Source: Bacillota bacterium (lineage in GTDB: Bacteria; Bacillota; Sulfobacillia; Sulfobacillales; Sulfobacillaceae). Taken from it: a DNA stretch of 64,000 nt. The stretch is from NCBI GenBank assembly GCA_023511625.1, contig JAIMBD010000010.1:1-64000 (forward strand), given 5' to 3'. A program made the position numbers and the translations under genes. Of this stretch, positions 2,380 through 50,127 are shown in pieces (within the stretch, counting starts at the first letter, position 1; each line of letters begins with the position of its first letter). A model generated the notes under the pieces. The model had not been told where the DNA came from. It made no database searches and saw nothing but the letters and a program-made list of their open reading frames with translations.

Positions 2380-3585
2380 TCAGACTTCCTCGTGGGGAGT
2401 GGCCTCCTCGCTCAGGTCCGGGGCGGCAATTGGCGTGACCGAGAGCGCCCCACTGTCTCCGTACTGATAGAGGAGGTCGAGGATCGCGATGCCGATGCGC
2501 ACCCAAGTGCGTACCCGCGGGTCGAGCTGCTCGAGACGCAGGCGCACCGCGTCGTAGAGGGATTCGGGCGCAATCGGCGCGCGCCATCCAAAGGCTTCTT
2601 GGTGCAGCTCGACGATCCGTCCAAGAAGGGCTCGGATCTGGTCGCTCGTGAGGGGGTCAAGCGTCTGGGCGTTGGCCAGAGCCTCCAACCCCATCCGTGC
2701 CCAGGGGGCCAATGCCTGCTCGCGCGGGCGCCCTTCCAGCCACTCGGGCGCGAGCAGGCGGTCCTTTCTCGGCTGCAGCACGTCGGTTTCGTAGTTGCCG
2801 GCTACGGCCCAGAGGGTGACGGTGCGTTCACCCACGCCGGACAGCCATCGTCCGAGGTGGGCGTAACTTTTGGCGCGCCCACCGCGACCGAAGCGGCCGA
2901 TGAGCTCAACCTCGTCGAAGAGGATGAGCCATCCGCGATAACCGGCCTGCCCCACGGTAAAGTCCACGAAGCGCAAGTAGTTCCACACCTCGTCGCGGAG
3001 GCGAGATGGGGCACTGGGTTCTGCGTGTTTAAACGGCCGCTGGAAATTCTTGCGGTAGTGTTGGCGGATGGTGGCCATGGACAAGAACTCGCCTTCGATG
3101 TCTGCCAGCAACTCCTCATAACCCTGGTCGCGTCGGGCGAGCGATTTGACCACTGCGCGCAGCCGGTCCGACAGCCGCTCCTCCGCCAGCTCCGCTAGGA
3201 ATTGTGGCGAAGCCATGGCTTCCGCGATGATTTCCGCCAACCCAGGTTGGTGGCTGCCTGGGCGGTAGGTGTTGGCTACGAGCTTGGGATAGAGGTAGTC
3301 CATACGGTCGAGTGGCGTCTCTTTGCTCAGCGTCACCCAACTGACCACCCAGTGGCGGTCTTGGGCCACCTTGGCCAACGCGTGCAGGAGATGGGTCTTG
3401 CCGTCGCCGAATTCGGCCCGCCACACCCGTCCCCACGTTTTGGGACGATGTCCGCTTTCTACTGTTTCCAACAATCGCACGGTGTCGTCCAGCACGGCTT
3501 GGCGGCCGACCAACACGGCTTGTGCCGTCTCGGGGTACGGCACTCCAGAGCGCAGGCCCTCAATAACAGCGCGCGCGTTAATCAT
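2380..3585 (-). CDS. BREX BrxD-like P-loop ATPase (DUF2791 family)
   Basis: 401 residues from the ATG whose context is ATGATTAACGCG; this start gives the family-typical N-terminus MINARAVIEGLRSGVP and overlaps the stop of the upstream gene by 8 bp, so an earlier in-frame start is unlikely. A Walker A-type loop GDGKTH is at about 60-65, and Walker B WLILFDEVE at about 219-227 with acidic D-E. Proteins of this type (DUF2791, BrxD of type 2 BREX) are ATPases of phage-defence loci. No pglX methylase, pglZ phosphatase or helicase is nearby, so a complete BREX system is not present. Third and last gene of a tightly packed operon. The family assignment rests on motif and N-terminal resemblance only. 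Confidence 0.75.
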   Translation of the reverse strand: MINARAVIEGLRSGVPYPETAQAVLVGRQAVLDDTVRLLETVESGHRPKTWGRVWRAEFGDGKTHLLHALAKVAQDRHWVVSWVTLSKETPLDRMDYLYPKLVANTYRPGSHQPGLAEIIAEAMASPQFLAELAEERLSDRLRAVVKSLARRDQGYEELLADIEGEFLSMATIRQHYRKNFQRPFKHAEPSAPSRLRDEVWNYLRFVDFTVGQAGYRGWLILFDEVELIGRFGRGGRAKSYAHLGRWLSGVGERTVTLWAVAGNYETDVLQPRKDRLLAPEWLEGRPREQALAPWARMGLEALANAQTLDPLTSDQIRALLGRIVELHQEAFGWRAPIAPESLYDAVRLRLEQLDPRVRTWVRIGIAILDLLYQYGDSGALSVTPIAAPDLSEEATPHEEV

Positions 3586-4771
3586 CGGACATCGCCTCCT
3601 CTGCCCGTCGACGGGCCACCTGTGCCACGGCACGGCGAGGCCATCCCCAATCCCACCCTTGGTCAGTGTCTCGTGGGAAGCGAGGGGATTGTGGATCCCA
3701 GATGACGGTGGCGACGGCCCATTGGTGCGCTAGGGCTGCGCGGCGATCCGGATCTGTCTCCCACGCGTGGTCGAGGTCGATGAGGTCGCTCCACCGGTTC
3801 AAGCGGTCGGTGCGAACCTCGCTTTCAAGTCGCGCCCAAAGGGCGGGGTACGCCGGAAACCCCTGAAAGGGGTCAGTCACTGCGTTCGTCGTAGCGGCCA
3901 ACGCGAAAAAGGTGTACGGCGTATGGATGCTGTGGTCAATCAGCTCGCGCAACATCTCGTAGGCTTGGTCCCGCAGGGATCGAGAATAATATGGCACTCC
4001 CTCAAGGCGTTCGGGGCGCCCCAGTACGTCGAGATTGTCGACGGCCACCACGAGTCCTCGCCGTCCCGCAACATGGGCCAGAAGCGCCAACGAAGCCAGG
4101 ACAGCGCGCGCATTGCGGCGACTGACGTTGGCGAGGACGCCCAACTGGCGCCGGTCGGCGGCCGTTAGAGGTTCTCCGCGCAACCAGGCTACCGTCCGGG
4201 GGTCCGGTGTCTCTCCCCGCCACCGCGCGTGCAGGGCATGGCGCAGAACGCGAGCGATGTTGCGCTCCAGGTCCCAGCGTTTGAGCCAAGGCCCTGTCTC
4301 TCGCACCAAGTCCTCGGTCACCTCCGGACTCCGACCTTGAGCTGCGGCCCAAGTGAGGTACGAGGCCAAAGGGCCCTCGTAATCCCGCTCGCCCATCGTG
4401 TCGCGTAGCAAGCGGTGGCCCACGCCTTCGATGAGTGCTTCCCAGTCGACGGCTGCGGCGACGCGCCGATACAGTTCCTCGATGCCGGAAAGACGCGCCT
4501 GGCGGGCATCGACCCAGGCAGTGAGGTATCCCATCGCCTGCGCCGAGTCTTTAAGGTGGCGCAAGAAATGGGTCTTTCCTGCGCCCGGCCCTCCCAAGAT
4601 CCACTTCACTTTGCCGTATCCTTGGGGTACGAAAGTTTCGAGGTAGTGCCGACACCAGAACTGCCAAAGGGTGCCCGGATCCACAAACGTCTCCCGCACG
4701 CTATCTGGGATGAGCATCTCCGCGGCGGGAAGGCGGGCGAAGCGGAGCCAGGATTCTCGATCGGCGCTCAT
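3578..4771 (-). CDS. P-loop ATPase, BREX BrxC/D-like
   Basis: 397 residues from ATG (MSADRESWLRF), which follows the stop of the upstream gene by 2 bp; longer in-frame starts would run deep into that gene. Walker A GGPGAGKTH is at 60-68, Walker B GLVVAVDNLDVL at about 239-250, and a sensor-like ATTNAV at about 293-298. It is distinct from, though probably distantly related to, the ATPase encoded next to it, so the operon carries two ATPases. A variable helical region of about 170 residues lies between the two Walker motifs. No transmembrane segment is visible. Role unknown; a defence or DNA-remodelling complex is an inference from the partner's family. Confidence 0.65.
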   Translation of the reverse strand: MSADRESWLRFARLPAAEMLIPDSVRETFVDPGTLWQFWCRHYLETFVPQGYGKVKWILGGPGAGKTHFLRHLKDSAQAMGYLTAWVDARQARLSGIEELYRRVAAAVDWEALIEGVGHRLLRDTMGERDYEGPLASYLTWAAAQGRSPEVTEDLVRETGPWLKRWDLERNIARVLRHALHARWRGETPDPRTVAWLRGEPLTAADRRQLGVLANVSRRNARAVLASLALLAHVAGRRGLVVAVDNLDVLGRPERLEGVPYYSRSLRDQAYEMLRELIDHSIHTPYTFFALAATTNAVTDPFQGFPAYPALWARLESEVRTDRLNRWSDLIDLDHAWETDPDRRAALAHQWAVATVIWDPQSPRFPRDTDQGWDWGWPRRAVAQVARRRAEEAMSDD

Positions 4772-4773
4772 GG

Positions 4774-5583
4774 TCAGTGCTCCTGGGCTATGGGCACGAA
4801 CTCCAACGAGCCCACGACCTCGCGGCGACCGCTGGGACTGACCAACACCAACGTCCGGTTCCGCGACGCCCCAAATCGCGCTTGACGTCCATCGAGGACC
4901 AGTTCCCCAGACTGTCGCAGGCGATAGATGTCGTACCCGAATTGATTCCACGAATACCCGCGGGGTCCGCTGCGGAGACTTAACACCTCCCAGATGCGGC
5001 GAAGAGAGACGGAGGGTGCCCGGATGCCCTTGACGTGATTTTCGGCCTGCACCAAGTCATACGCTGCTGCCAAGGCCTTGAGAAACTGCCCGGGGTGAAA
5101 ACGCTCCGCGTTGAGTCGCTCCAGGTGTTTTAGGACCTGTGCCGCCACCGCCTCCGGATGCAGTGCACGCGTGATCCGCCGGTTGATCTCGACCTGTTCT
5201 TGGCTGAGGTCGACTCGGACCTCGAGCGGGAAAATCCGGTAGTCCGGGAACTCGCCTTCTACTGCCCGCTTGCCGTGTAAGGCAGCGCGAAACCGGCCCT
5301 GCCATTCGTCAGCATCGAAGGTCCCCTGTGCCACTCGGTACTGCTGGAGTTGTTTCAGGACACCATCTGCCAATGTCAGAAGCTCCTGTCCACTGCGGAC
5401 CATCTCCTCCAAGTCCCGGCGCAACTCCAGGAGATTCATGACCTTGGTCTGTCGAGCGACGCGTCTTAACCGCCCGATGCGTTCTGCGATGCGCCCGACT
5501 CGCTCAAGTGCGGGACCAATCCGCTGTTCAAAGGTGGCGACGCCAGAGAGCGTCGCGGGGACCGCGCTGTCCCTATCTTCCAA
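4774..5583 (-). CDS. Unknown coiled-coil protein, first gene of the ATPase operon
   Basis: 269 residues starting at a TTG preceded by GGAAGGGAGG at 8-bp spacing. The N-terminal third (about 20-95) is heptad-like and charged, suggesting a coiled coil. The C-terminal 80 residues (around SVSLRRIWEVL and WNQFGYDIYRLRQSGEL) look like a winged-helix fold followed by a short beta strand-rich tail. I do not recognise the family. Tight coupling to two P-loop ATPases suggests it is a structural or DNA-binding partner of them. No catalytic motif is visible. Confidence 0.6.
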   Translation of the reverse strand: MEDRDSAVPATLSGVATFEQRIGPALERVGRIAERIGRLRRVARQTKVMNLLELRRDLEEMVRSGQELLTLADGVLKQLQQYRVAQGTFDADEWQGRFRAALHGKRAVEGEFPDYRIFPLEVRVDLSQEQVEINRRITRALHPEAVAAQVLKHLERLNAERFHPGQFLKALAAAYDLVQAENHVKGIRAPSVSLRRIWEVLSLRSGPRGYSWNQFGYDIYRLRQSGELVLDGRQARFGASRNRTLVLVSPSGRREVVGSLEFVPIAQEH

Positions 5584-5919
5584 CGCCGGAGCCTCCCTTC
5601 CTCCCCGCCAAAAGCCGCGGTCGGTGTTTTACTGATGAGTCATGTCACCATTCGACTTGGTCTGGGAAATTCCTTCCAGAATCGTGGCTGTGCAGGGTAG
5701 AGGGGTCCGGGAGCATGGAGGAGCGCTTTCGGCATGAGGACCAGCGCTGGCGGGGGCCTTTGGATGGCGTCCGGACGAAGGGGCCATGCCGGTCGAGGGC
5801 GGGTGGGCGACCGCAGCCGTGTCGGCCTCTTCCCCTGCGAAGAAAAACCGCAGATTCCGCAAAACCGTCCCCTGCCGGGCGGGTGTTTTGTCCACCGGTC
5901 TCCGTCTGTAGCTGGGAGA
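5584..5919. other. Upstream region of the ATPase operon; no gene recognised
   Basis: This 336-bp stretch separates the start of the three-gene operon from the transposase remnant. It should contain the operon promoter on the minus strand, but no convincing -35/-10 pair is visible. The open frames here have no recognisable family. Confidence 0.4.
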
Positions 5920-6948
5920 TTGCGGTCGGTGGCAGGAAGCCCAGGAACCGCTTGCGCCGAGACCGGTCCCGATTGCGAAATCCATCACGGAGCTGTTTCA
6001 CGTTGCTTCATCTTGACGTAAAGACCCTCAATGAAGCCATGGGTCCAGCGCTGGGCTTGAGGGTCCAGTGCCCGCGGATTGCGCGGCGCCAGCGCGCATG
6101 GTGTGGACCCCCACGGCGCCCTCCGCGTGGTCACCGGCATCGGCGTGGTCCAGCCAGCGGTCCCAGGCGAGGCCCGGCGGGCGGCTTCCGGCGTCTTCGC
6201 CGGCCGGAGCGCTCGCAAGTCTTCTTTCAGCTGGTAGAGTTGGCCCAATGCCGGCCACCGCTCCGCAATGATGGCTAACTTTGCCTATTGTCGGGCGGTG
6301 AGGTATTCCTGCCCGGTGACCCGCGGCCAGCAGGCAATGGGGGGGCCGGACTTCCGCCGGTGCGAGGCGCCGGATCTCCTCCCGGCGTCGATTGGCGTCG
6401 TGGATGCGGGGGGAGGGGTCCGCGAGGACCCGAGCCTGGGGGCACACGACGCGGGCATCGGCCGGCTTGAGCTCCCCCGTCACCGCGCGAATCCGCGCCC
6501 GCGCGTCGGCCGGCATCGAACCGAATCAGGGCTCCAAGGACCGGAGCCGATCGTCGCCCCAGATCGCGAGAAGCCGGCACTCGGGGGCTTGCCACGCGAC
6601 CGTGATCAGCAGGTCCTGGCTCCGAACGCTACGCCCATCGATTTGGAGCACCCGATCCCCCGGCGGGACCCACCCCATCGCCGGCACCGGGCGGCGGACA
6701 CGTCCAATCGGCGGCCGACGCTGCGGAAACGTGCCTGACGGCGCGGGATTTGCGCCGCCTCCTACGACGCCGGCGTCCCCCGCTGGGCCGGAACGGTCTC
6801 ATGGCGTTGCTGGCGCGAGTTGTCCGCGATGCGGGCACTGCGGCGGCCGTAGTACGGTGACGGTGACCGGCCACACTCCGGCGGTCGCTCCCGCGGCAGT
6901 CACCTCCCAGCCTTCCAGCGGTAATAGGGTGGTGAGACCCTGATCCAT
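5920..6948 (-). pseudogene. Decayed ISL3-family-like transposase
   Basis: Read on the minus strand, pieces of one transposase appear in order but in different frames: an N-terminal MDQGLTTLLPLEGW with a CPH remnant of the zinc-binding motif, then LLAIWGDDRLRSLEP, then ADARARIRAVTGELKPADARV, then GQLYQLKEDLRALRPAKTPEAARRA, then a C-terminal THGFIEGLYVKMKQ and LRDGFRNRDRSRRKRFLGF. This order is that of ISL3-type (IS1167/ISL3) DDE transposases. Several frameshifts separate the pieces, so it is not functional. Terminal inverted repeats were not found. Confidence 0.7.
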
Positions 6949-7130
6949 GGCAGCACTCCCTGGGGCGGATGTCGTCAAGACCCTCCATTGGCGGTGCTTT
7001 CGGCCATTTCCTGCCGCAGAACCTTGCGACCTTTTTGGATTGCCGTCCCTCTATCGTCGGAGAAAATCCGTCTCCCGGAACTTCGAAGGGAGTCAGATCC
7101 TGCAGGTTCTATCGTAGAGCCTTGTCCACC

Positions 7131-7161
7131 TTGACTTTGATGGACTCAGCCTGCATACTAA
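7131..7161 (+). promoter_or_regulatory. Probable promoter of tRNA-Gln
   Basis: TTGACT at 7131-7136 is followed by CATACT (7154-7159, 17-bp spacer) or TACTAA (7156-7161, 19-bp spacer). Initiation would fall a few bases before the tRNA start at 7171. Confidence 0.55.
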
Positions 7162-7170
7162 AGGGCGAGT

Positions 7171-7246
7171 TGGGGAGTCGCCAAGCTGGTAAGGCACGGG
7201 ACTTTGGATCCCGCATGCGCAGGTTCGAGTCCTGCCTCCCCAGCCA
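7171..7246 (+). tRNA. tRNA-Gln (anticodon UUG)
   Basis: A cloverleaf folds with acceptor TGGGGAG/CTCCCCA, D arm GCCA...AGGC, anticodon stem CGGGA/TCCCG with loop CTTTGGA (anticodon TTG), T arm GCAGG-TTCGAGT-CCTGC, discriminator G and encoded CCA at 7244-7246. It lies among decayed mobile DNA, and tRNA genes are common integration targets. Confidence 0.96.
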
Positions 7247-42875: not shown

Positions 42876-45800
42876 TTAGGGGAGTTGGGCAACTACACTG
42901 CTGTTGATGGCTGCGGCTCCTCCCATGACCCAAAACGGCCCACTCGGCACGGCTGCGGTGAGGTACTGAAGGCTCTCCGCAGGAAAAGCCGATGGAGCTG
43001 TTAGTACGATGGGTATGTTGAGTGACCCCGCCAGGACCGAAGCAGATAGGGCGTCGACAAAAGATCCCCCATGACTGCCATCGGCGGCGATGACGGCTCC
43101 ACCTGGCTCGGCCGGGAAGAAATGCTGGTCAATGGCCACGGCCGTAGCATCTCGGGTTGCACCCCCGAGCTGTGTTACCGTCAGGCCGGCATTGGACAAT
43201 TGGGAGCTGACCGTTGGCAGCACTGCCGCGGGTCCCCCTAACACCACCGCCTGCCGAATTCCCGCCCCCTCAAGCGCCTGTAGAGCGGCAGCAGGAAGGG
43301 CCGTTTGTCCCGTATTTACGAGCAACACAGGCGCCTGCAACCGGTAGATGACGGGGCTCGCGGAAAGGGCGTCCACCATTGTCGCCCCATTGGCCACAAA
43401 GACGGTTGATGCGTGGCTTAATCCGTGCTGGTAGAGGTAGTTATCGATTAGCTGCGCGGTTTGAAATCGATCCGACCCTTGAAAAGCGCGGACCACGGTT
43501 AGGCCAGATTGTTGAAGAGTTGTTACCACTGCGTCGCCTACGGCAGCGGGACCGCCCACGATGTACACGGTCTTTGCACCCAGGGATTGGATCGCGGACA
43601 ATACCTCCGGCGACAGCTGATTTGCAGCGGTCAGAAGGATCGGGCCGTGGATGGCGCCTGCCAATCCCGCCGCTGCCAGCGCATCTGGACTCGGGGCTCC
43701 TTCTCCGGCATTCGCCAGCACCACTGCAGTCGTCCCGTCAGGGAACGCGGTTTCGGCGGCCGCAATCGCGGTGTCGATGCGGGTTGCACCGGCCACCCGC
43801 TGGATCTGGGACAAAGCTCCTGTTGGCACGACCGCGAATAGGGTGAGGTGTTCCGTGGTAATGGAAACCGCGTTGCCGTGAATGGTAACGCCTGGCACAA
43901 TCTCCCACTGGAGCGCGAGGGGATTCCAATAAGCTACCGTCAATGCGCCCAGGGCAGTAGGGAAGGCCCATGTAACCGTTACCGGCTGGGTGAAATACGC
44001 CGAGGGCGTCGCGGTCAGGTCTACTGCTTGTAAAGTATCCAGCGGTGTGACGCCTGCCGGTAGGTTGGTCAAGGGGTTTACGGTGACGGTCGTGCGTTCG
44101 GTCACTGCACCTGGCGGCACACTGACGGCTATGCTGTTCCCATTGGCGAAAGACGCCGTGACGGTTCCGCCTGAAGCGGGCGTGACGGTTCCGGTTACGG
44201 GGCCATTCACGGGGGCTGGGCTGGGTGCCGGGCTGACCCCGCCACCACCGCTGGCACCACCGCCACCACCGCCTGCACTACCAGCGCCACCGCCGCCACC
44301 GCCGCCACCGCTTGCCATGACCGGCGGGTTGATAGTGAGGGTTAGCGACGCTGTGGCGGTTGCGCCGGCGCTATCCGTGACTTGCACCGTAAAGGTCGTC
44401 GTGCCAGGCGTCGTCGGTGTGCCGGACAGGGTTCCGGCGGCGGACAAACTCAAGCCGGGGGGCAGTTGGCTTCCTGCAGCTAATGCCCAGGTGTAAGGTG
44501 GCATCCCATTGCTGGCCGATAAGGTGGCACTATAGGAGGACCCTACTTGGCCGGAGGGCAGAGAACTGGTGGTCACCACCGGCGCATTGGCGGCAGCAAA
44601 CGGGGTTCCGGCCAGTTCGGCCAGAGAGGGGGTCGTGGTACTACTGACCGTGACGGTCACGCAGGCCGTCGCGGCATTGAACTGCTGATCGGACGCCGGT
44701 ACCCATTGGTTGGCGCTCTGATTGAACCAGTCAATGGTTGTGGCTCCGTTGAGGTTACAGAACTGGATGGTGACTGTGGTGAAGGAGCTATTGGGAGCGA
44801 GGCTGACATCGTAAAACGCCCCGGTACTATCGGACGGGGACACCGCTGTAGGGTTGGCGGATTCTTGTGCCACGGCTACCGCTCCCGTGCCTCCTGATGC
44901 AGTGGCCTGCACAACGTTGCCTACGCTGGCCGATGCTGGAGTTTGGGCGTTCGTACTCTGGCCGAATGCCACGGCTGCCGGTGGCCGCACTCCAGATGGC
45001 GTAACCAACAACGCGAGTATGGCACTTTGGGAACTGCCTTGAGCATCTGTTACCGTCACCGTGAAGAACGTGGGACCGGAACCCGGTTCCGTTGGGGTGC
45101 CACTTAACACACCCGCACTGGTAAGGGTTAGTCCGGGTGGCAAAGAGCCGTTCGTGACTGCCCACGTATACGGGGGGGTGCCACCAGTGGCTTGCAAGTT
45201 CACCGAATAAGCGCTTCCCACGCTGGCACCCGGTAAGGTTGCGGTAGTGATGGCCAACGCGGAGGCAGAGGTTCCAGCGTTTACGGTTAGCGATAACGTT
45301 GCTTTAGCCGTGGCCGGCGGCGTCTCCGCATCGGCTACCTGAACCGTGAAGGTGGTCGTGCCGGCTGCTGTGGGGGTCCCACTAATTTGCCCATTGGCTG
45401 CCAAGGTGAGCCCCGGCGGCATCGCACTTCCCGAGACCAGGCTCCAGGTGTAGGGCGGCACCCCGCCGCTTGCCTGGAGACTGGCCGAGTAAGGCGAGCC
45501 AACCTGTCCCGCCGGCAAGCTGGCTGTGACGACCCCCAACGAGCCAGGCGAGGTGGGCGTTCCGCTTACAGTGAGCACCTCATTCTGTACCACGGCCCCT
45601 GACTGCCACGTGACGGGAGGGGTTGCCGTGGCGGGGAAGCCGTTGACTGTAAACGTCACCGGGTCCCCCTGGTCCGCGGCGGTGCCTTGGATAATCAGCT
45701 GTGGCGTCAGCCCTGTTCCGCCAAATTGTCCAGATGACTGAATGGCAAGGGTTCCATCTGCCTGTCCATTTAAGTAAGCGGTCACCGTACCCGATGTCAC

Positions 45801-45950
45801 CGGCTGCCCGTTGACAGCGACTACTTTGCCGGAGACTGCCATTGGCAGTACCGGTGCGGTAGGCGCGGCCCATACCGATATCGCGGGGCCGACGACCATT
45901 CCGGCTGCCATGACTATCGTTGTTATGTGCCGGAGGGTTCCTCGACGCAT
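42876..45950 (-). CDS. Secreted protein with Ig-like and cell-wall-binding repeat 2 domains
   Basis: 1024 residues. Signal peptide about 1-29 (cleavage after VWA). Then three to four putative-Ig (He_PIG) units, recognisable by repeated PPYTW...LPPGL.L...G.LSGTPT...TTFTVQV, with another domain between them containing PSAVAFGQSTNAQTP. A Gly/Ser-rich linker follows about residue 550, then a ZU5-like segment (VSVPPGAVTERTTVTV), and three PF04122 repeats from about 735 (RVAGATRIDTAIA, GSDRFQTAQLI, GGATRDATAVAI with IVGGPAAV-type units). PF04122 anchors proteins to the cell wall. ATG after GAGGGGATGTT. A decayed copy lies at 50.9-52.8 kb. Confidence 0.92.
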   Translation of the reverse strand: MRRGTLRHITTIVMAAGMVVGPAISVWAAPTAPVLPMAVSGKVVAVNGQPVTSGTVTAYLNGQADGTLAIQSSGQFGGTGLTPQLIIQGTAADQGDPVTFTVNGFPATATPPVTWQSGAVVQNEVLTVSGTPTSPGSLGVVTASLPAGQVGSPYSASLQASGGVPPYTWSLVSGSAMPPGLTLAANGQISGTPTAAGTTTFTVQVADAETPPATAKATLSLTVNAGTSASALAITTATLPGASVGSAYSVNLQATGGTPPYTWAVTNGSLPPGLTLTSAGVLSGTPTEPGSGPTFFTVTVTDAQGSSQSAILALLVTPSGVRPPAAVAFGQSTNAQTPASASVGNVVQATASGGTGAVAVAQESANPTAVSPSDSTGAFYDVSLAPNSSFTTVTIQFCNLNGATTIDWFNQSANQWVPASDQQFNAATACVTVTVSSTTTPSLAELAGTPFAAANAPVVTTSSLPSGQVGSSYSATLSASNGMPPYTWALAAGSQLPPGLSLSAAGTLSGTPTTPGTTTFTVQVTDSAGATATASLTLTINPPVMASGGGGGGGGAGSAGGGGGGASGGGGVSPAPSPAPVNGPVTGTVTPASGGTVTASFANGNSIAVSVPPGAVTERTTVTVNPLTNLPAGVTPLDTLQAVDLTATPSAYFTQPVTVTWAFPTALGALTVAYWNPLALQWEIVPGVTIHGNAVSITTEHLTLFAVVPTGALSQIQRVAGATRIDTAIAAAETAFPDGTTAVVLANAGEGAPSPDALAAAGLAGAIHGPILLTAANQLSPEVLSAIQSLGAKTVYIVGGPAAVGDAVVTTLQQSGLTVVRAFQGSDRFQTAQLIDNYLYQHGLSHASTVFVANGATMVDALSASPVIYRLQAPVLLVNTGQTALPAAALQALEGAGIRQAVVLGGPAAVLPTVSSQLSNAGLTVTQLGGATRDATAVAIDQHFFPAEPGGAVIAADGSHGGSFVDALSASVLAGSLNIPIVLTAPSAFPAESLQYLTAAVPSGPFWVMGGAAAINSSVVAQLP

Positions 45951-46073: not shown

Positions 46074-49000
46074 TCAGGGACTGGCATTTCCGGTTCCGAT
46101 TTCGCCCACCAACACCGCATTCGGCGGCAGATTTTCACCGTAGACCCAATAGGCGTACCCGTCGCTCACGGGCATCGACTGGAGAGTGTGCAGCGGGTTT
46201 GCCACAGCGTTTCCGGTGCCATTGGGATCGGTGATCATGGCGATCTCCGCGCTGCTAGGCAAATTGTCCAGGGCGGCTAGGAAGGTCAGGTCCGATTCTG
46301 AGCCGGCGAGGCTGGAAGGCCCGACCAGGTTCCATCCGTTCTGGAGCGAAACAGTGGGCGGCGGCATCTGCGCCGAGGTCGGCGTAAGCGTTACCGACTG
46401 GGGGGCAGAGCCTTCCGGAAGGTCTACATACAGCCCTGTCATCGGCGTGGAGAGCACCTGGTACACATTTGCCGTCGTGACCTGCTGCCAACCGCCGTTG
46501 AAGTACTGGTAGGTGGGGGCGTTCAACGATGCCAGCAGGTTGGCCAACGCGGTTTGGGAGGCCTTACTGAGCACGTAGGGGAACGACAGTGTGTTCCAGC
46601 CCGACTGGAGGGTCCGAACCACCTGCTGAGATGGTGGCACCGGCCCCGGGTAGCTCGGAACGGTTACCGCCTGGTAAGAGACCTGGCTAACGGCGGTGTT
46701 CGACGTGTTGAATTGGTATACGCCATAGTACTCGCTTGCGATGGTCCCGTCGGTGATGGTAGTGTTGGTGATCGTGGCGCCTAGCTGGCTTGGAGTGCCA
46801 CCCAGGATGCTGATGCCAATGCCTTCGTTGCCAGGCACTCCGGCCTGCGGGTCTGTCCCGTTGCCGCTGATGGTGTTTCCGATCAGTTGGTTGCCGTCAA
46901 CCACGGAACCTGGTGCATGGGTGTGCAAGACGATCCCACCGGATTCGTTGCCTTCCACCACGTTATTCTCTACCACGTTATCCTGCACCACTCCGCCTGG
47001 GACAGGTGTTGCCAACAAGATGCCGGCGCCGCCGTTGCCGGTCACCTGATTGTCCGAGACGGTGTTGTCCGAGACGCCATTCGGGGCCGTGCCGCTGTGC
47101 GAAGCCAGGGTGATCCCGCAATCCACGGCATTGTTCTCGACGACGTTCCCCTCGACGGTGTTGCCTGTGGTCGGCCCCGTCTCGTCGGTGAGATAGATGC
47201 CGCCGTCGAGGTTGTTGACCACCTGGTTGTTAGTTATCTGGGAGTTGGTCACGCCGATCAGGTGGAGCGCCTCGCAATCGTTTCCCGGCGAGCAGGGCGC
47301 CGAGTTCGTGGCGGTGAAGCCGGTCGGACCCGGTGCAAGCGTCGGGTTGCTGGCGGCGTAGCTCTGGTCATTGTTCTGCACGACGTTGTCGGCGATGGTC
47401 AGGTTTGACGTGTTCATCGCCACGATCCCCGCCTTTTCGGCGTTCTCCACCGTAAGACCTGCGACCGTGGTGCCGGATGCACCGGGCCCTTCAATCACAA
47501 TGCCATTCGGTTGCCCAGTGGCATCTAGAATCACCTGCCCGGGCGCTGTTCCGGGCGCACCTTCCAACGTCACGGCCTGCGTGATCGTCACCGCCTCGTG
47601 GTAGGTGCCGGCTTCGAGGGCTATCACTGCACCCGGAGCGGCCACTGAAAGCGCGTGGGTGATCGTGGCAAAGGGGGCGCTGGCGGTGCCGTTGCCTCCG
47701 GTGTCGCTACCCGACGGGCTGACCCAGACCGGATTGGCGATCGTCGTTTGGCCCTGCGCGAGGCCTGCCGCAGTCGCTGTCAGCGTCGTGGTGCCGGAGA
47801 CATTGGGCGGCTGTACATACTCTACCTGCGCGCTTCCCGCGACCGGTATCTGAGTAACAACTTGGCCATTTTCCTCGAACACGCCGCCCGGGGTTGTCGA
47901 GCTTAAGGCCACGACCGTGGAGTCGTCTGGCTCGGGATTGCCGTTGGCGTCTTCGATCGTGATGGTCACGGTGTAGGTAGTCGGTGGATTGAGGGGATTC
48001 TGGTTAGCAGCCAGCTGCGCCGAGAGGGCTAGCTGCGAAGCCGCATTGGGATTGCTTGAGGCTGTCAATGTCAACGGCGCACCCGATCCGTACCCTGCTG
48101 CGGATACGGTTACGGTGTACTGCTGCGCAAGGGTGGCCGTGGCATCTAGCGTGACGCTTGACTGGCCCGCCGGAATGGTTACCGACCCCGATACCGGGCT
48201 TCCATTCTGCGTCAGGGTTAAGCCCGAAGACGGGCTGACCGTCACCGTCACCGGTACGCCTCCGGAGGAAGCCACCACCGGATTCCCGTACTGGTCCTGG
48301 AGAGCGACCGTAATGGGATCAGGCGTTCCAACCGTCGGGGTGGAGGTTCCGTTGGGGCCGAAGCTCACGACCACTTCCGCCCCGTTGGCCGGCGTCACGG
48401 TTAATGACAGGGCGTTCGAGGTCAACGTCCCGCCCGCGGCCGTGCCGGTGATGGTGATCGGACCGGACGGCGGGGTAAATTGGGTGTCGGCGTAGTACAC
48501 CGCTGCCGTGGTGCCGGCTGCCACGTACACCGACTGGATGGTGGTAGACGCGGCGGGGGTTGCATAGAAGTCTCCTATAGTCACCGACGGGTTCCCGGTC
48601 ACCGCCGAAAGGGCGACCGTTTCGCCCTGCACGTTACTGGCGGGTACGCTCACATAGACGGGAATCCGCTGTTGCACGGCTATGCTCGCAGAGGCTTGAC
48701 TGGCGGTCTGCGAGAAGCTCAGTACCGGCGCCACCCCCACCGTGATCTGTTTGGTGGCTTTCGAGTAAGGGCTCGCTGTGGCAGTTATGGTGTCCGAGCC
48801 TACGGTGGTGGACTCCACCCAGAACTGCGCCGAGGTCGAGCTCGCTGGGATGGTCACCGCCGTCACCTGGTTTGCGCTTCCGCCGCTGGCCGCGCTATAG
48901 AAGGTGGTGCCCGCCGATCCTGACAACGCCACCGTCACGCCACCGGACGGAGCCGGTGCTGAATTTCCATAGCTGTCCTTCAAGGTAACGGTGTAGTATT

Positions 49001-49928
49001 GAGCAGACACCGTGTTGGGCGTGAGCGCCGACGGGCCGGCGAGCGCGAGTTGGGTGGGTGTCCCAGGGCTCACGGTGAGTTGGGCCGTCGCGGAAGTGAC
49101 CCCACTTGCGCTGGCTGTCAAGGTCTCAGTCCCCGCTGCTGTATCATTGACCGCGATGGAGGCTGTCGGGGACGAAGAGGACAGCGTCACCGAACTCGGC
49201 GTGAACGTGGCGGTTTGGGACGTGGAGGAGAAGGACACACTTAGCGAAGGCGAGGGGTATGCAAGATTTCCGTATTGGTCTACGGCGTATACGGTCTCCG
49301 TCACCGAATTACCGGCCGTGGTGCTGGATGAAGCCGGGTAGAGGACCAGCGCGCTCGGAGGTCCTGGGTTGACGATCACCGAGGAGTTACTTGGGACGGA
49401 GGTCCCGAGGGGATCCTCGGCGGAAAACCCCGTATATGGGCCCGCCTGGGTGGGATTGACTACCCCGCTCAGCGTGATTTGGAAGTTATAAACGGCTCCT
49501 GTGACGGTAGACGGGATGCTCCCCCACGAGAACTCGATGGCACTGCTCGTACTGAGCGCTATCGAGGTTCCATTAACGGTTCCTGACCCGCCGGTGGTAT
49601 TTCCCGTGCCAGGACTGTACGTCACTTGGCTGATTTGGGCATGGGATAGGTCATAACCTGCGGTTGGGGGGAAGACGATTTCGGCGAACTCCCCGGTGGA
49701 CGGCGCATACGTGTAGTCTAGGGTCACGGTATAGTCTACGGATTGCCCCACGGTGTTGGACTGAGAGACCGGCTGCACCTGCACACTGGTCAGCTGGGTG
49801 GAACTTGCCGCTGCTGCAGGTACGGGTTCCCACAGCCCAAATGCCCACAGGAACACCGCCATCCCCGTCGCCAAGGACGCCAACCGTCTTAACCAGACTG
49901 TGGACCTTTTGCGGGTTGCTTTAACCAT
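46074..49928 (-). CDS. Secreted Ig-like / parallel beta-helix protein
   Basis: 1284 residues from the ATG (MVKATRKRSTVWL) that has AAGGAGG at 5-bp spacing and overlaps the stop of the small gene before it by 8 bp. Signal peptide about 1-40. Residues about 45-790 hold Ig/invasin-like beta domains (repeated VTLKDSYGNSAPAPSGGVTVALS-type units). About 800-1130 is a right-handed beta helix, with repeats such as NTVEGNVVENNAVDCGI and NVVENNVVEGNESGGI, like NosD or pectate-lyase-type PbH1 repeats. The C-terminus has two NGGWQQVTT/LQNGWNLVGP repeats. Carbohydrate binding or cleavage is possible but no active site was recognised. Confidence 0.9.
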   Translation of the reverse strand: MVKATRKRSTVWLRRLASLATGMAVFLWAFGLWEPVPAAAASSTQLTSVQVQPVSQSNTVGQSVDYTVTLDYTYAPSTGEFAEIVFPPTAGYDLSHAQISQVTYSPGTGNTTGGSGTVNGTSIALSTSSAIEFSWGSIPSTVTGAVYNFQITLSGVVNPTQAGPYTGFSAEDPLGTSVPSNSSVIVNPGPPSALVLYPASSSTTAGNSVTETVYAVDQYGNLAYPSPSLSVSFSSTSQTATFTPSSVTLSSSSPTASIAVNDTAAGTETLTASASGVTSATAQLTVSPGTPTQLALAGPSALTPNTVSAQYYTVTLKDSYGNSAPAPSGGVTVALSGSAGTTFYSAASGGSANQVTAVTIPASSTSAQFWVESTTVGSDTITATASPYSKATKQITVGVAPVLSFSQTASQASASIAVQQRIPVYVSVPASNVQGETVALSAVTGNPSVTIGDFYATPAASTTIQSVYVAAGTTAAVYYADTQFTPPSGPITITGTAAGGTLTSNALSLTVTPANGAEVVVSFGPNGTSTPTVGTPDPITVALQDQYGNPVVASSGGVPVTVTVSPSSGLTLTQNGSPVSGSVTIPAGQSSVTLDATATLAQQYTVTVSAAGYGSGAPLTLTASSNPNAASQLALSAQLAANQNPLNPPTTYTVTITIEDANGNPEPDDSTVVALSSTTPGGVFEENGQVVTQIPVAGSAQVEYVQPPNVSGTTTLTATAAGLAQGQTTIANPVWVSPSGSDTGGNGTASAPFATITHALSVAAPGAVIALEAGTYHEAVTITQAVTLEGAPGTAPGQVILDATGQPNGIVIEGPGASGTTVAGLTVENAEKAGIVAMNTSNLTIADNVVQNNDQSYAASNPTLAPGPTGFTATNSAPCSPGNDCEALHLIGVTNSQITNNQVVNNLDGGIYLTDETGPTTGNTVEGNVVENNAVDCGITLASHSGTAPNGVSDNTVSDNQVTGNGGAGILLATPVPGGVVQDNVVENNVVEGNESGGIVLHTHAPGSVVDGNQLIGNTISGNGTDPQAGVPGNEGIGISILGGTPSQLGATITNTTITDGTIASEYYGVYQFNTSNTAVSQVSYQAVTVPSYPGPVPPSQQVVRTLQSGWNTLSFPYVLSKASQTALANLLASLNAPTYQYFNGGWQQVTTANVYQVLSTPMTGLYVDLPEGSAPQSVTLTPTSAQMPPPTVSLQNGWNLVGPSSLAGSESDLTFLAALDNLPSSAEIAMITDPNGTGNAVANPLHTLQSMPVSDGYAYWVYGENLPPNAVLVGEIGTGNASP

Positions 49929-50127
49929 CCGAGCCTCCTTCCACCTCTCTAGATACGCGTGCCAGGTCGTGCTCCAGCCGCTCGAGGTACGCCTCCAGCG
50001 CGGCAATGATAATGGACTGCTGCGACTGGCCCAAGGAGCGACTTGCCGACACCAACCGCTGTTTTAAGGTTGTTGGCGTCCGGATTTGGAAGGCCGACCA
50101 GCCGATCGGCTCCCACTTCCTGGGCAT
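49921..50127 (-). CDS. Small ribbon-helix-helix (CopG/Arc-like) protein
   Basis: 68 residues. After about 13 residues the pattern FQIRTPTTLKQRLVSASRSLGQSQQSIIIAALEAYLERLE matches ribbon-helix-helix DNA-binding proteins: a beta strand, then two helices. Strong AAAGGAGGGAGGC before the ATG. Its stop TAA lies within the start region of the beta-helix gene (ATGGTTAA), so the two are translationally coupled. Probably an autoregulator of the surface-protein operon. Confidence 0.75.
   Translation of the reverse strand: MPRKWEPIGWSAFQIRTPTTLKQRLVSASRSLGQSQQSIIIAALEAYLERLEHDLARVSREVEGGSDG

What the first reader, a model, noticed from the sequence alone, without database searches (positions are those of the whole stretch)
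2380..5583. Compact three-gene operon with two BREX-like ATPases and an unknown partner
Three genes with an 8-bp overlap and a 2-bp gap encode an unfamiliar coiled-coil/winged-helix-like protein and two different P-loop ATPases, one resembling BrxD/DUF2791. The BREX methylase, phosphatase and helicase are absent. Two ATPases plus a fixed partner, with no other defence genes, suggests a minimal stand-alone machine, possibly antiviral. Sequence shows the operon and motifs; the defence role is inference.
Basis: partly seen in the sequence, partly recalled or inferred. Interest (0 to 1): 0.75.

Follow-up and report, generated by a model that had tools for sequence, protein, structure and literature searches.

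The report
Three-gene ATPase module, probably antiviral
Three neighbouring genes encode two different ORC-like ATPases and a DNA-binding-like partner; the same trio, always in the same order, recurs across distantly related bacteria, usually beside a swappable antiviral helicase, so it looks like an uncatalogued defence module that this genome carries without its usual helicase.

Summary
Three intact minus-strand genes (A 4774-5583, B 3578-4771, C 2380-3585) encode a partner of no known family and two different BrxC/BrxD-family (PF10923) ATPases. In 102 of 102 non-redundant loci from several phyla the order A-B-C on one strand is kept. The trio is patchy (20 of 31 genomes of the window's family) and never found within 10 kb of BREX PglZ in 54 genomes.

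It is usually not alone: within 3 kb lie an XPB/PbeA-like SF2 helicase (48 loci), BrxL (20), Shango SngB-SngC (5) or an SNF2 helicase (4). The window's copy and 16 others have none of these, and the window's genome has no BrxL. It nests in the BrxL clade, so this state is probably a derived loss; partnerless relatives remain under purifying selection.

C folds like archaeal Orc/Cdc6 and keeps its catalytic residues; B lacks the Walker B glutamate in 101 of 102. Most likely: a DNA-sensing heteromeric ATPase that loads or licenses exchangeable helicases in antiviral defence. Defence is inferred from context, not tested. PADLOC-DB 2023 and the papers searched do not describe it.

The parts
4774..5583 (-). 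Gene A: 269-aa partner with no known family; helical hairpin (res. 15-81), small beta region (109-138), C-terminal winged-helix-like region (164-264). Start codon uncertain (TTG 5583 or GTG about 5541).
   Evidence: ORF and translation; no family hit; AlphaFold2 model mean pLDDT 93; no PDB match below E 1e-3
3578..4771 (-). Gene B: 397-aa BrxC/BrxD-family ATPase; Walker A GPGAGKTH intact, Walker B VDN without the usual glutamate
   Evidence: PF10923 90.7 bits over residues 48-322; motif survey across 102 loci
2380..3585 (-). Gene C: 401-aa BrxC/BrxD-family ATPase with intact Walker A (GDGKTH) and Walker B (LFDE); ORC/Cdc6-type AAA+ fold
   Evidence: PF10923 85.5 bits; model pLDDT 93; Orc2 Z 16.0, TnsC Z 13-14, BrxC Z 11.8
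5593..5605 (-). Purine-rich ribosome-binding-like stretch (GGGGAGGAAGGGAGG region) upstream of gene A's TTG start
   Evidence: read directly from the sequence; not tested

Best explanation
The trio is the constant core of an uncatalogued defence-associated module. Inferred mechanism: A, through its winged-helix-like domain, recognises DNA or a DNA structure. B and C form a mixed ORC/Cdc6-like AAA+ assembly on DNA, in which C hydrolyses ATP and B mainly binds it. On meeting invading DNA the assembly loads or licenses a helicase-type effector: BrxL, an XPB/PbeA-like SF2 helicase, SngC with SngB, or an SNF2 helicase. In the window the neighbouring effector has been lost, so the trio either works alone or uses a helicase encoded elsewhere. 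Shown here: the fixed trio, both ATPase families, C's fold, the motif asymmetry, the swappable partners, the patchy distribution and purifying selection on partnerless relatives. Inferred: defence, DNA recognition, complex formation and helicase loading.
For: 102 of 102 non-redundant loci keep A-B-C on one strand. Partners within 3 kb: PbeA/XPB-like helicase 48, BrxL 20, SngC 5, SNF2 4, with PADLOC scores PbeA 2.5e-62, BrxL 5e-122, SngB 1e-118 to 1e-126, SngC 1e-166 to 1e-168. In the window's family, 8 of the 9 trio genomes that have any BrxL carry it on the trio's contig. C's model is closest to archaeal Orc2/Orc1/Cdc6 (Z 14-16), then TnsC (13-14), MuB (12) and BrxC (11.8). C keeps GK[ST] in 101 of 102 loci and the Walker B DE wherever aligned (100 of 100). 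B keeps GK[ST] in 97 of 102 but has DE in only 1 of 102. Patchy within genera, including near-closed genomes without it, and 5 of 63 in another class. Partnerless pairs L032/L033 and L034/L036 have dN/dS about 0.1-0.17. Published precedents: BrxD is classed as ORC/Cdc6 AAA+ and proposed to load or activate BrxHI; BrxL is an MCM-family AAA+, and SF2 helicases are thought to fill its role where it is missing (PMC12839542).
Against: No phage, binding or ATPase data exist. The window copy sits among rmuC, tRNA and metabolic genes, not in a defence island. Seventeen loci, this one included, show no listed partner, so the helicase is dispensable at least in cis. Only one relative was found in 2.9 million viral contigs and none in the plasmid or phage collections, so mobility is not directly visible. 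A has no significant structural match beyond its hairpin, so the winged helix rests on the model's topology. B's missing glutamate might be replaced by another acidic residue (DD in 56 of 102).
Confidence: 0.5

Rival explanations
1. The trio is itself a complete defence system: sensing (A), regulation (B) and execution (C) in one complex, with neighbouring helicases being auxiliary.
For: Partnerless copies exist in several branches of the tree, about half of the trio genomes of the window's family lack BrxL altogether, and two partnerless pairs are under purifying selection.
Against: About 77 of 102 loci carry a helicase-type partner, often at fixed spacing and orientation. No nuclease or other effector domain is seen in A, B or C. 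The window genome has SNF2 and SF2 helicases elsewhere that could act in trans.
Confidence: 0.2
2. The window copy is a remnant: the BrxL effector was lost and the trio is decaying or has a residual regulatory use.
For: It nests inside the BrxL clade; BrxL is absent from the genome. The same-genus copy (L031) has a C gene split into two overlapping ORFs, and a family member (G428) has A broken by a stop.
Against: All three window ORFs are intact with full motifs. Other partnerless pairs show dN/dS about 0.1-0.17.
Confidence: 0.15
3. A housekeeping or stress role in replication or DNA repair (an initiator or helicase loader) rather than defence.
For: ORC/Cdc6-like fold; the C profile's only solved-structure hits are DnaI helicase loaders, weakly (E 0.013); SNF2 and SbcCD-like genes flank one locus (L044, reading by eye).
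Against: Patchy presence within genera, including near-closed genomes without it. Partners are defence proteins (BrxL, Shango), and Cas3-like genes adjoin two loci. No constant housekeeping neighbour.
Confidence: 0.12
4. A transposon targeting module, like TnsC-TniQ or MuB, captured from a mobile element.
For: C's fold resembles TnsC and MuB (Z 12-14); an ATPase plus a small DNA-binding-like partner is the TnsC/TniQ layout.
Against: No transposase or integrase cluster was recognised recurring beside the trio. PF10923, not a TnsC family, is the sequence match. Helicase partners dominate.
Confidence: 0.03

Closest known systems
BrxD and the BrxD-BrxHI dyad of type 2 BREX
   Same: Same Pfam ATPase family PF10923; ORC/Cdc6-type AAA+; linked to a helicase
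   Different: Two diverged BrxD-like ATPases instead of one, an extra partner A, no PglZ nearby; scores far below the BrxD equivalog cut-off
Shango (SngA-SngB-SngC)
   Same: BrxD-like ATPase with a helicase; in five loci the trio directly adjoins SngB-SngC
   Different: The trio's ATPases score only 37-39 bits against SngB, where real SngB scores about 400; A shows no match to any PADLOC model; the window has no SngC beside it
PbeABCD / CxC-DndE phosphorothioate-linked system
   Same: The commonest partner helicase resembles the helicase part of PbeA
   Different: That match starts after about the first 250 positions of the PbeA profile, leaving out the N-terminal HKD (PLD) nuclease region; A, B and C match none of PbeB-D; no Dnd genes were recognised
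[quoted passage not shown]
   Same: Direct downstream partner in 20 loci; the two tested (L040, L018) exceed the BrxL equivalog cut-off
   Different: Trio-linked BrxL scores about 300-340 bits against the BrxL Pfam model, BREX-linked BrxL mostly 430-490; not next to PglZ
SspB-SspC of the Ssp system; TnsC-TniQ; ORC/Cdc6-MCM
   Same: Works-like comparison: ORC/Cdc6-type ATPase paired with a winged-helix protein or with an MCM-like motor
   Different: No membership claimed; resemblance of C's fold only, and Ssp known here from the literature (PMC10853773)

Membership tests
BrxC/BrxD ATPase family (Pfam PF10923) | Profile score above the gathering cut-off of 22.2 bits | tested here: met
   C 85.5 bits, B 90.7 bits
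BrxD equivalog (NCBIfam NF033438) | Score above 350 bits | tested here: not met
   53.9 and 71 bits
BREX | PglZ in the locus | tested here: not met
   No PglZ in the window genome; none found within 10 kb of the trio in 54 genomes, nearest about 15 kb in G173; some contigs are short
BREX | BrxL present (types 1 and 4) | tested here: not met
   No BrxL in the window genome, although 20 related loci have BrxL next to the trio
BREX | PglX-type DNA methyltransferase | not tested
   No methyltransferase family search was run over the genome; none was recognised beside the window trio
Shango | SngB ATPase and SngC helicase | tested here: not met
   Window ATPases 37-39 bits to SngB against about 400 for real SngB; only a distant SF2 helicase elsewhere, 24% identity
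Pbe system | PbeB, PbeC, PbeD homologs | tested here: not met
   No PADLOC hit of A, B or C to Pbe models at E up to 1
ORC/Cdc6-type AAA+ ATPase | AAA+ fold with C-terminal helical bundle, Walker A and Walker B | tested here: met
   C: model pLDDT 93, Orc2 Z 16.0, rmsd 4.0, 275 residues, motifs conserved. B inferred from PF10923 only, not folded.
ORC/Cdc6-type AAA+ ATPase | Arginine finger and oligomer ring | not testable with these tools
   No complex prediction available; conserved arginines (R359, R363 in C; R222, R275 in B) are only candidates
Winged-helix DNA-binding protein (gene A) | Winged-helix fold | tested here: inconclusive
   Secondary-structure order fits; among the top Foldseek rows are known winged-helix proteins but E is 0.3 or worse; VIA rows cover mainly the hairpin

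The most novel reading that the evidence does not exclude
Bacteria carry a dedicated ORC/Cdc6-like helicase-loading complex for immunity: a heteromer of one active and one hydrolysis-deficient ATPase plus a DNA-reading adaptor, which has exchanged its motor (MCM-like BrxL, SF2, SNF2, Shango) several times and can also act without one encoded beside it. It would be a defence counterpart of the ORC-MCM loading principle.
Probability: 0.35. Interest if true: 0.82.

Novelty: new variant of a known kind. Interest (0 to 1): 0.62.

Why it matters
BrxD-like ATPases recur in BREX and Shango, but their job is unknown; helicase loading is only a proposal in the literature (PMC12839542). Here nature supplies many versions of one constant ATPase pair and adaptor with the motor swapped or missing. 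That makes the question 'does the BrxD-type ATPase load the helicase?' directly testable. It also adds a widespread module that PADLOC-DB 2023 does not list, including in gut Lachnospiraceae and acidophilic Sulfobacillus relatives.

Tried and rejected
Plasmid and phage collections by tblastn with single proteins: no match. Viral contigs with the B profile: one match. Complete BREX or Shango in the window: rejected on whole-genome searches. Functional link to rmuC: rejected, rmuC is core in the family and lies on a different contig from the trio except in one relative, G417, about 9 kb away. Pbe membership: only the partner helicase is Pbe-like. PDB hits for gene A: only its helical hairpin aligns well (seryl-tRNA synthetase, SMC arms), read as a common coiled-coil arrangement, not kinship. 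Searches of the literature for the PF10923 accession, the family's names and the BrxD/BrxL/Shango combination found no description of this trio; subscription papers and preprints were not searchable. dN/dS between the window and its nearest relatives was uninformative because silent sites are saturated. Two rows of the automatic partner table had wrong distances: L169, where BrxL is directly downstream, and L166, where the SngC region between SngB and A looks broken.

Full report
WHAT IS THERE. The window lies at the start of contig C16 of a 2.59-Mb, 40-contig, 97%-complete genome. Three intact genes on the minus strand run A (4774-5583, 269 aa), B (3578-4771, 397 aa), C (2380-3585, 401 aa), with a 2-bp gap between A and B and an 8-bp overlap of B and C. 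B and C both match Pfam PF10923 (BrxC_BrxD) above the gathering score (90.7 and 85.5 bits against 22.2), but both fall far short of the BrxD equivalog cut-off (71 and 54 against 350 bits). A matches nothing in Pfam, PADLOC, NCBIfam or PHROGs; among 51 members of its family only scattered coiled-coil-type hits appear.

THE TRIO IS AN OBLIGATE UNIT. A search of 299 genomes of the phylum with A alone found 14 genomes and 15 loci; every one carried B and C beside it in the same order. A scan of species genomes with the B profile found 287 relatives; 80 were kept. They include Sulfobacillus, an Alicyclobacillaceae strain, Desulfosporosinus, Lachnospiraceae, Synergistaceae, Dehalococcoidia, Coprothermobacterota, a Coriobacteriales bacterium and a cyanobacterium. 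After adding class relatives and removing duplicates, 102 of 102 loci with all three genes have A-B-C on one strand. The scan used a single peptide pattern and kept the best 80, so the sampled range leans to Bacillota.

IT IS PATCHY. In the window's family 20 of 31 genomes have it; in genus g217 only 2 of 7 do, and absences include genomes of one to three contigs. In the class of G134 (Syntrophomonas relatives) it is in 5 of 63 genomes, each in a different genus. rmuC, the gene downstream in the window, is core in the family but sits on other contigs than the trio, except in G417 where it is about 9 kb away, so the trio's place varies.

IT HAS SWAPPABLE HELICASE PARTNERS. Within 3 kb of the 102 trios: a helicase of about 540 aa, nearly always divergent and immediately upstream of A, in 48 loci; BrxL directly downstream of C in 20; an SNF2 helicase in 4; SngC in 5; no listed partner in 16 plus the window (counted there as a contig edge, but rmuC fills its 3' side); contig edges in 8. 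The common helicase matches PADLOC PbeA over its helicase part (2.5e-62) and NCBIfam dnd_restrict_1 below cut-off. The BrxL of L040 and L018 exceed the BrxL equivalog cut-off. In the Shango cases PADLOC gives SngB 1e-118 to 1e-126 and SngC 1e-166 to 1e-168; the gene before SngB looks TerB-C-like by eye. In L019 and L020 a Cas3-like gene lies immediately upstream of the trio.

IT IS NOT BREX. Among 54 trio genomes PglZ was never found within 10 kb; the nearest is about 15 kb away in G173 and all others are on different contigs. Some contigs are short, so this is a statement about what the assemblies show. BrxL next to the trio scores about 300-340 bits to the Pfam model, whereas BrxL genes lying next to PglZ mostly score 430-490. 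In the window's family, eight of nine trio genomes with any BrxL have it on the trio's contig; eleven have none anywhere, including the window's.

THE WINDOW'S FORM IS DERIVED. A tree of concatenated A, B and C places the window with its same-genus relative L031 inside a well-supported group in which BrxL-bearing and partnerless loci are mixed; labels change 16 times at least, against about 50 when shuffled. This is a quick tree with some long branches, so order within the group is provisional. Two partnerless pairs from that group, L032/L033 and L034/L036, have dN/dS of about 0.1-0.17 in all three genes, so the trio can remain under selection without a neighbouring motor. Some relatives are broken: G428 has A split by a stop, and the same-genus L031 has C in two overlapping ORFs.

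STRUCTURES. A is predicted with high confidence (pLDDT 93): a long helical hairpin, a small beta region and a C-terminal part whose element order fits a winged helix. No PDB entry matches below E 1e-3; the structural second look sees mainly the hairpin. C is predicted with pLDDT 93. Its closest solved structures by VIA are archaeal Orc2 (Z 16.0, rmsd 4.0, 275 residues), Orc1/Cdc6 (14-15), TnsC (13-14), MuB (12) and BrxC (11.8); Foldseek ranks RdrA of RADAR first. B was not folded.

ASYMMETRIC ATPASES. C keeps the Walker A GK[ST] in 101 of 102 loci, the exception being the broken L031, and DE at Walker B in all 100 loci that align there. B keeps GK[ST] in 97 of 102, but the Walker B glutamate position is D, N, G, H or another residue in 101 of 102. 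This is the pattern of a pair in which one subunit hydrolyses ATP and the other mainly binds it, as in ORC and clamp loaders (established knowledge of those families); for B it is an inference.

MOST LIKELY MECHANISM. Published analysis classes BrxD as an ORC/Cdc6 AAA+ that may load or activate BrxHI (PMC12839542). It describes BrxL as an MCM-family AAA+ and suggests that SF2 helicases fill the same role where BrxL is missing. The trio fits this closely: an ORC-like pair plus an adaptor, beside a motor that is BrxL in one clade and an SF2-type helicase in others. The proposal is that A reads DNA, B and C assemble on it, and ATP turnover by C hands the motor onto invading DNA. In the window the motor must be elsewhere or unnecessary; distant SNF2 and SF2 helicases exist on contig C14 but show no link to the trio. 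Defence rests on context (BrxL, Shango, CRISPR neighbours, patchiness), not on experiment.

NOVELTY. PADLOC-DB 2023 has no model that A matches and only distant BrxD and SngB matches for B and C. Paper searches found no description. I therefore call it a new variant of a known kind (BrxD-family ATPase plus helicase defence), with a more radical reading left open.

Noticed in passing
window 5640-7170: About 1.5 kb upstream of the trio, up to the tRNA-Gln at 7171, holds no convincing gene; it may be degenerate sequence left by an insertion or deletion.
   Followed up: no
window 42876-45950 and 46074-50006, minus strand: Two very large neighbouring surface-type proteins: one with cell-wall-binding CWB2 and Ig-like domains, one with a right-handed beta helix.
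   Followed up: no
window 44326-44423: ARAGORN calls a second tRNA-Ala inside the 1024-aa surface protein gene on the opposite strand; probably a false call.
   Followed up: no
L164 4384-9128, L165 469-4739, L167 7900-12094, L170 10917-16012: Shango SngB-SngC operons, with an upstream gene that looks TerB-C-like, run straight into the A-B-C trio, suggesting a combined operon.
   Followed up: partly
G134:C22, G489:C168, G311:C10 versus trio-linked BrxL loci: Two BrxL types separate by score: the type beside PglZ and the type beside the trio.
   Followed up: partly
L042 14520-16417: Genes reading like Cas7 and Cas5 lie downstream of a partnerless trio (by eye, not searched); with L019 and L020 this would make three CRISPR-Cas neighbours.
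   Followed up: no
L044 2314-13937 (same place as L155): A trio flanked by an SbcCD-like pair upstream and an 1103-aa SNF2 helicase downstream.
   Followed up: no
L024 3901-10509: A trio followed by an Hsp70-like protein, two proteins of unknown family and a metallo-beta-lactamase nuclease-like protein in one run of genes.
   Followed up: no
L019, L020, L029, L030, L067: Gene B has lost its Walker A motif altogether in these five loci while C stays intact.
   Followed up: partly
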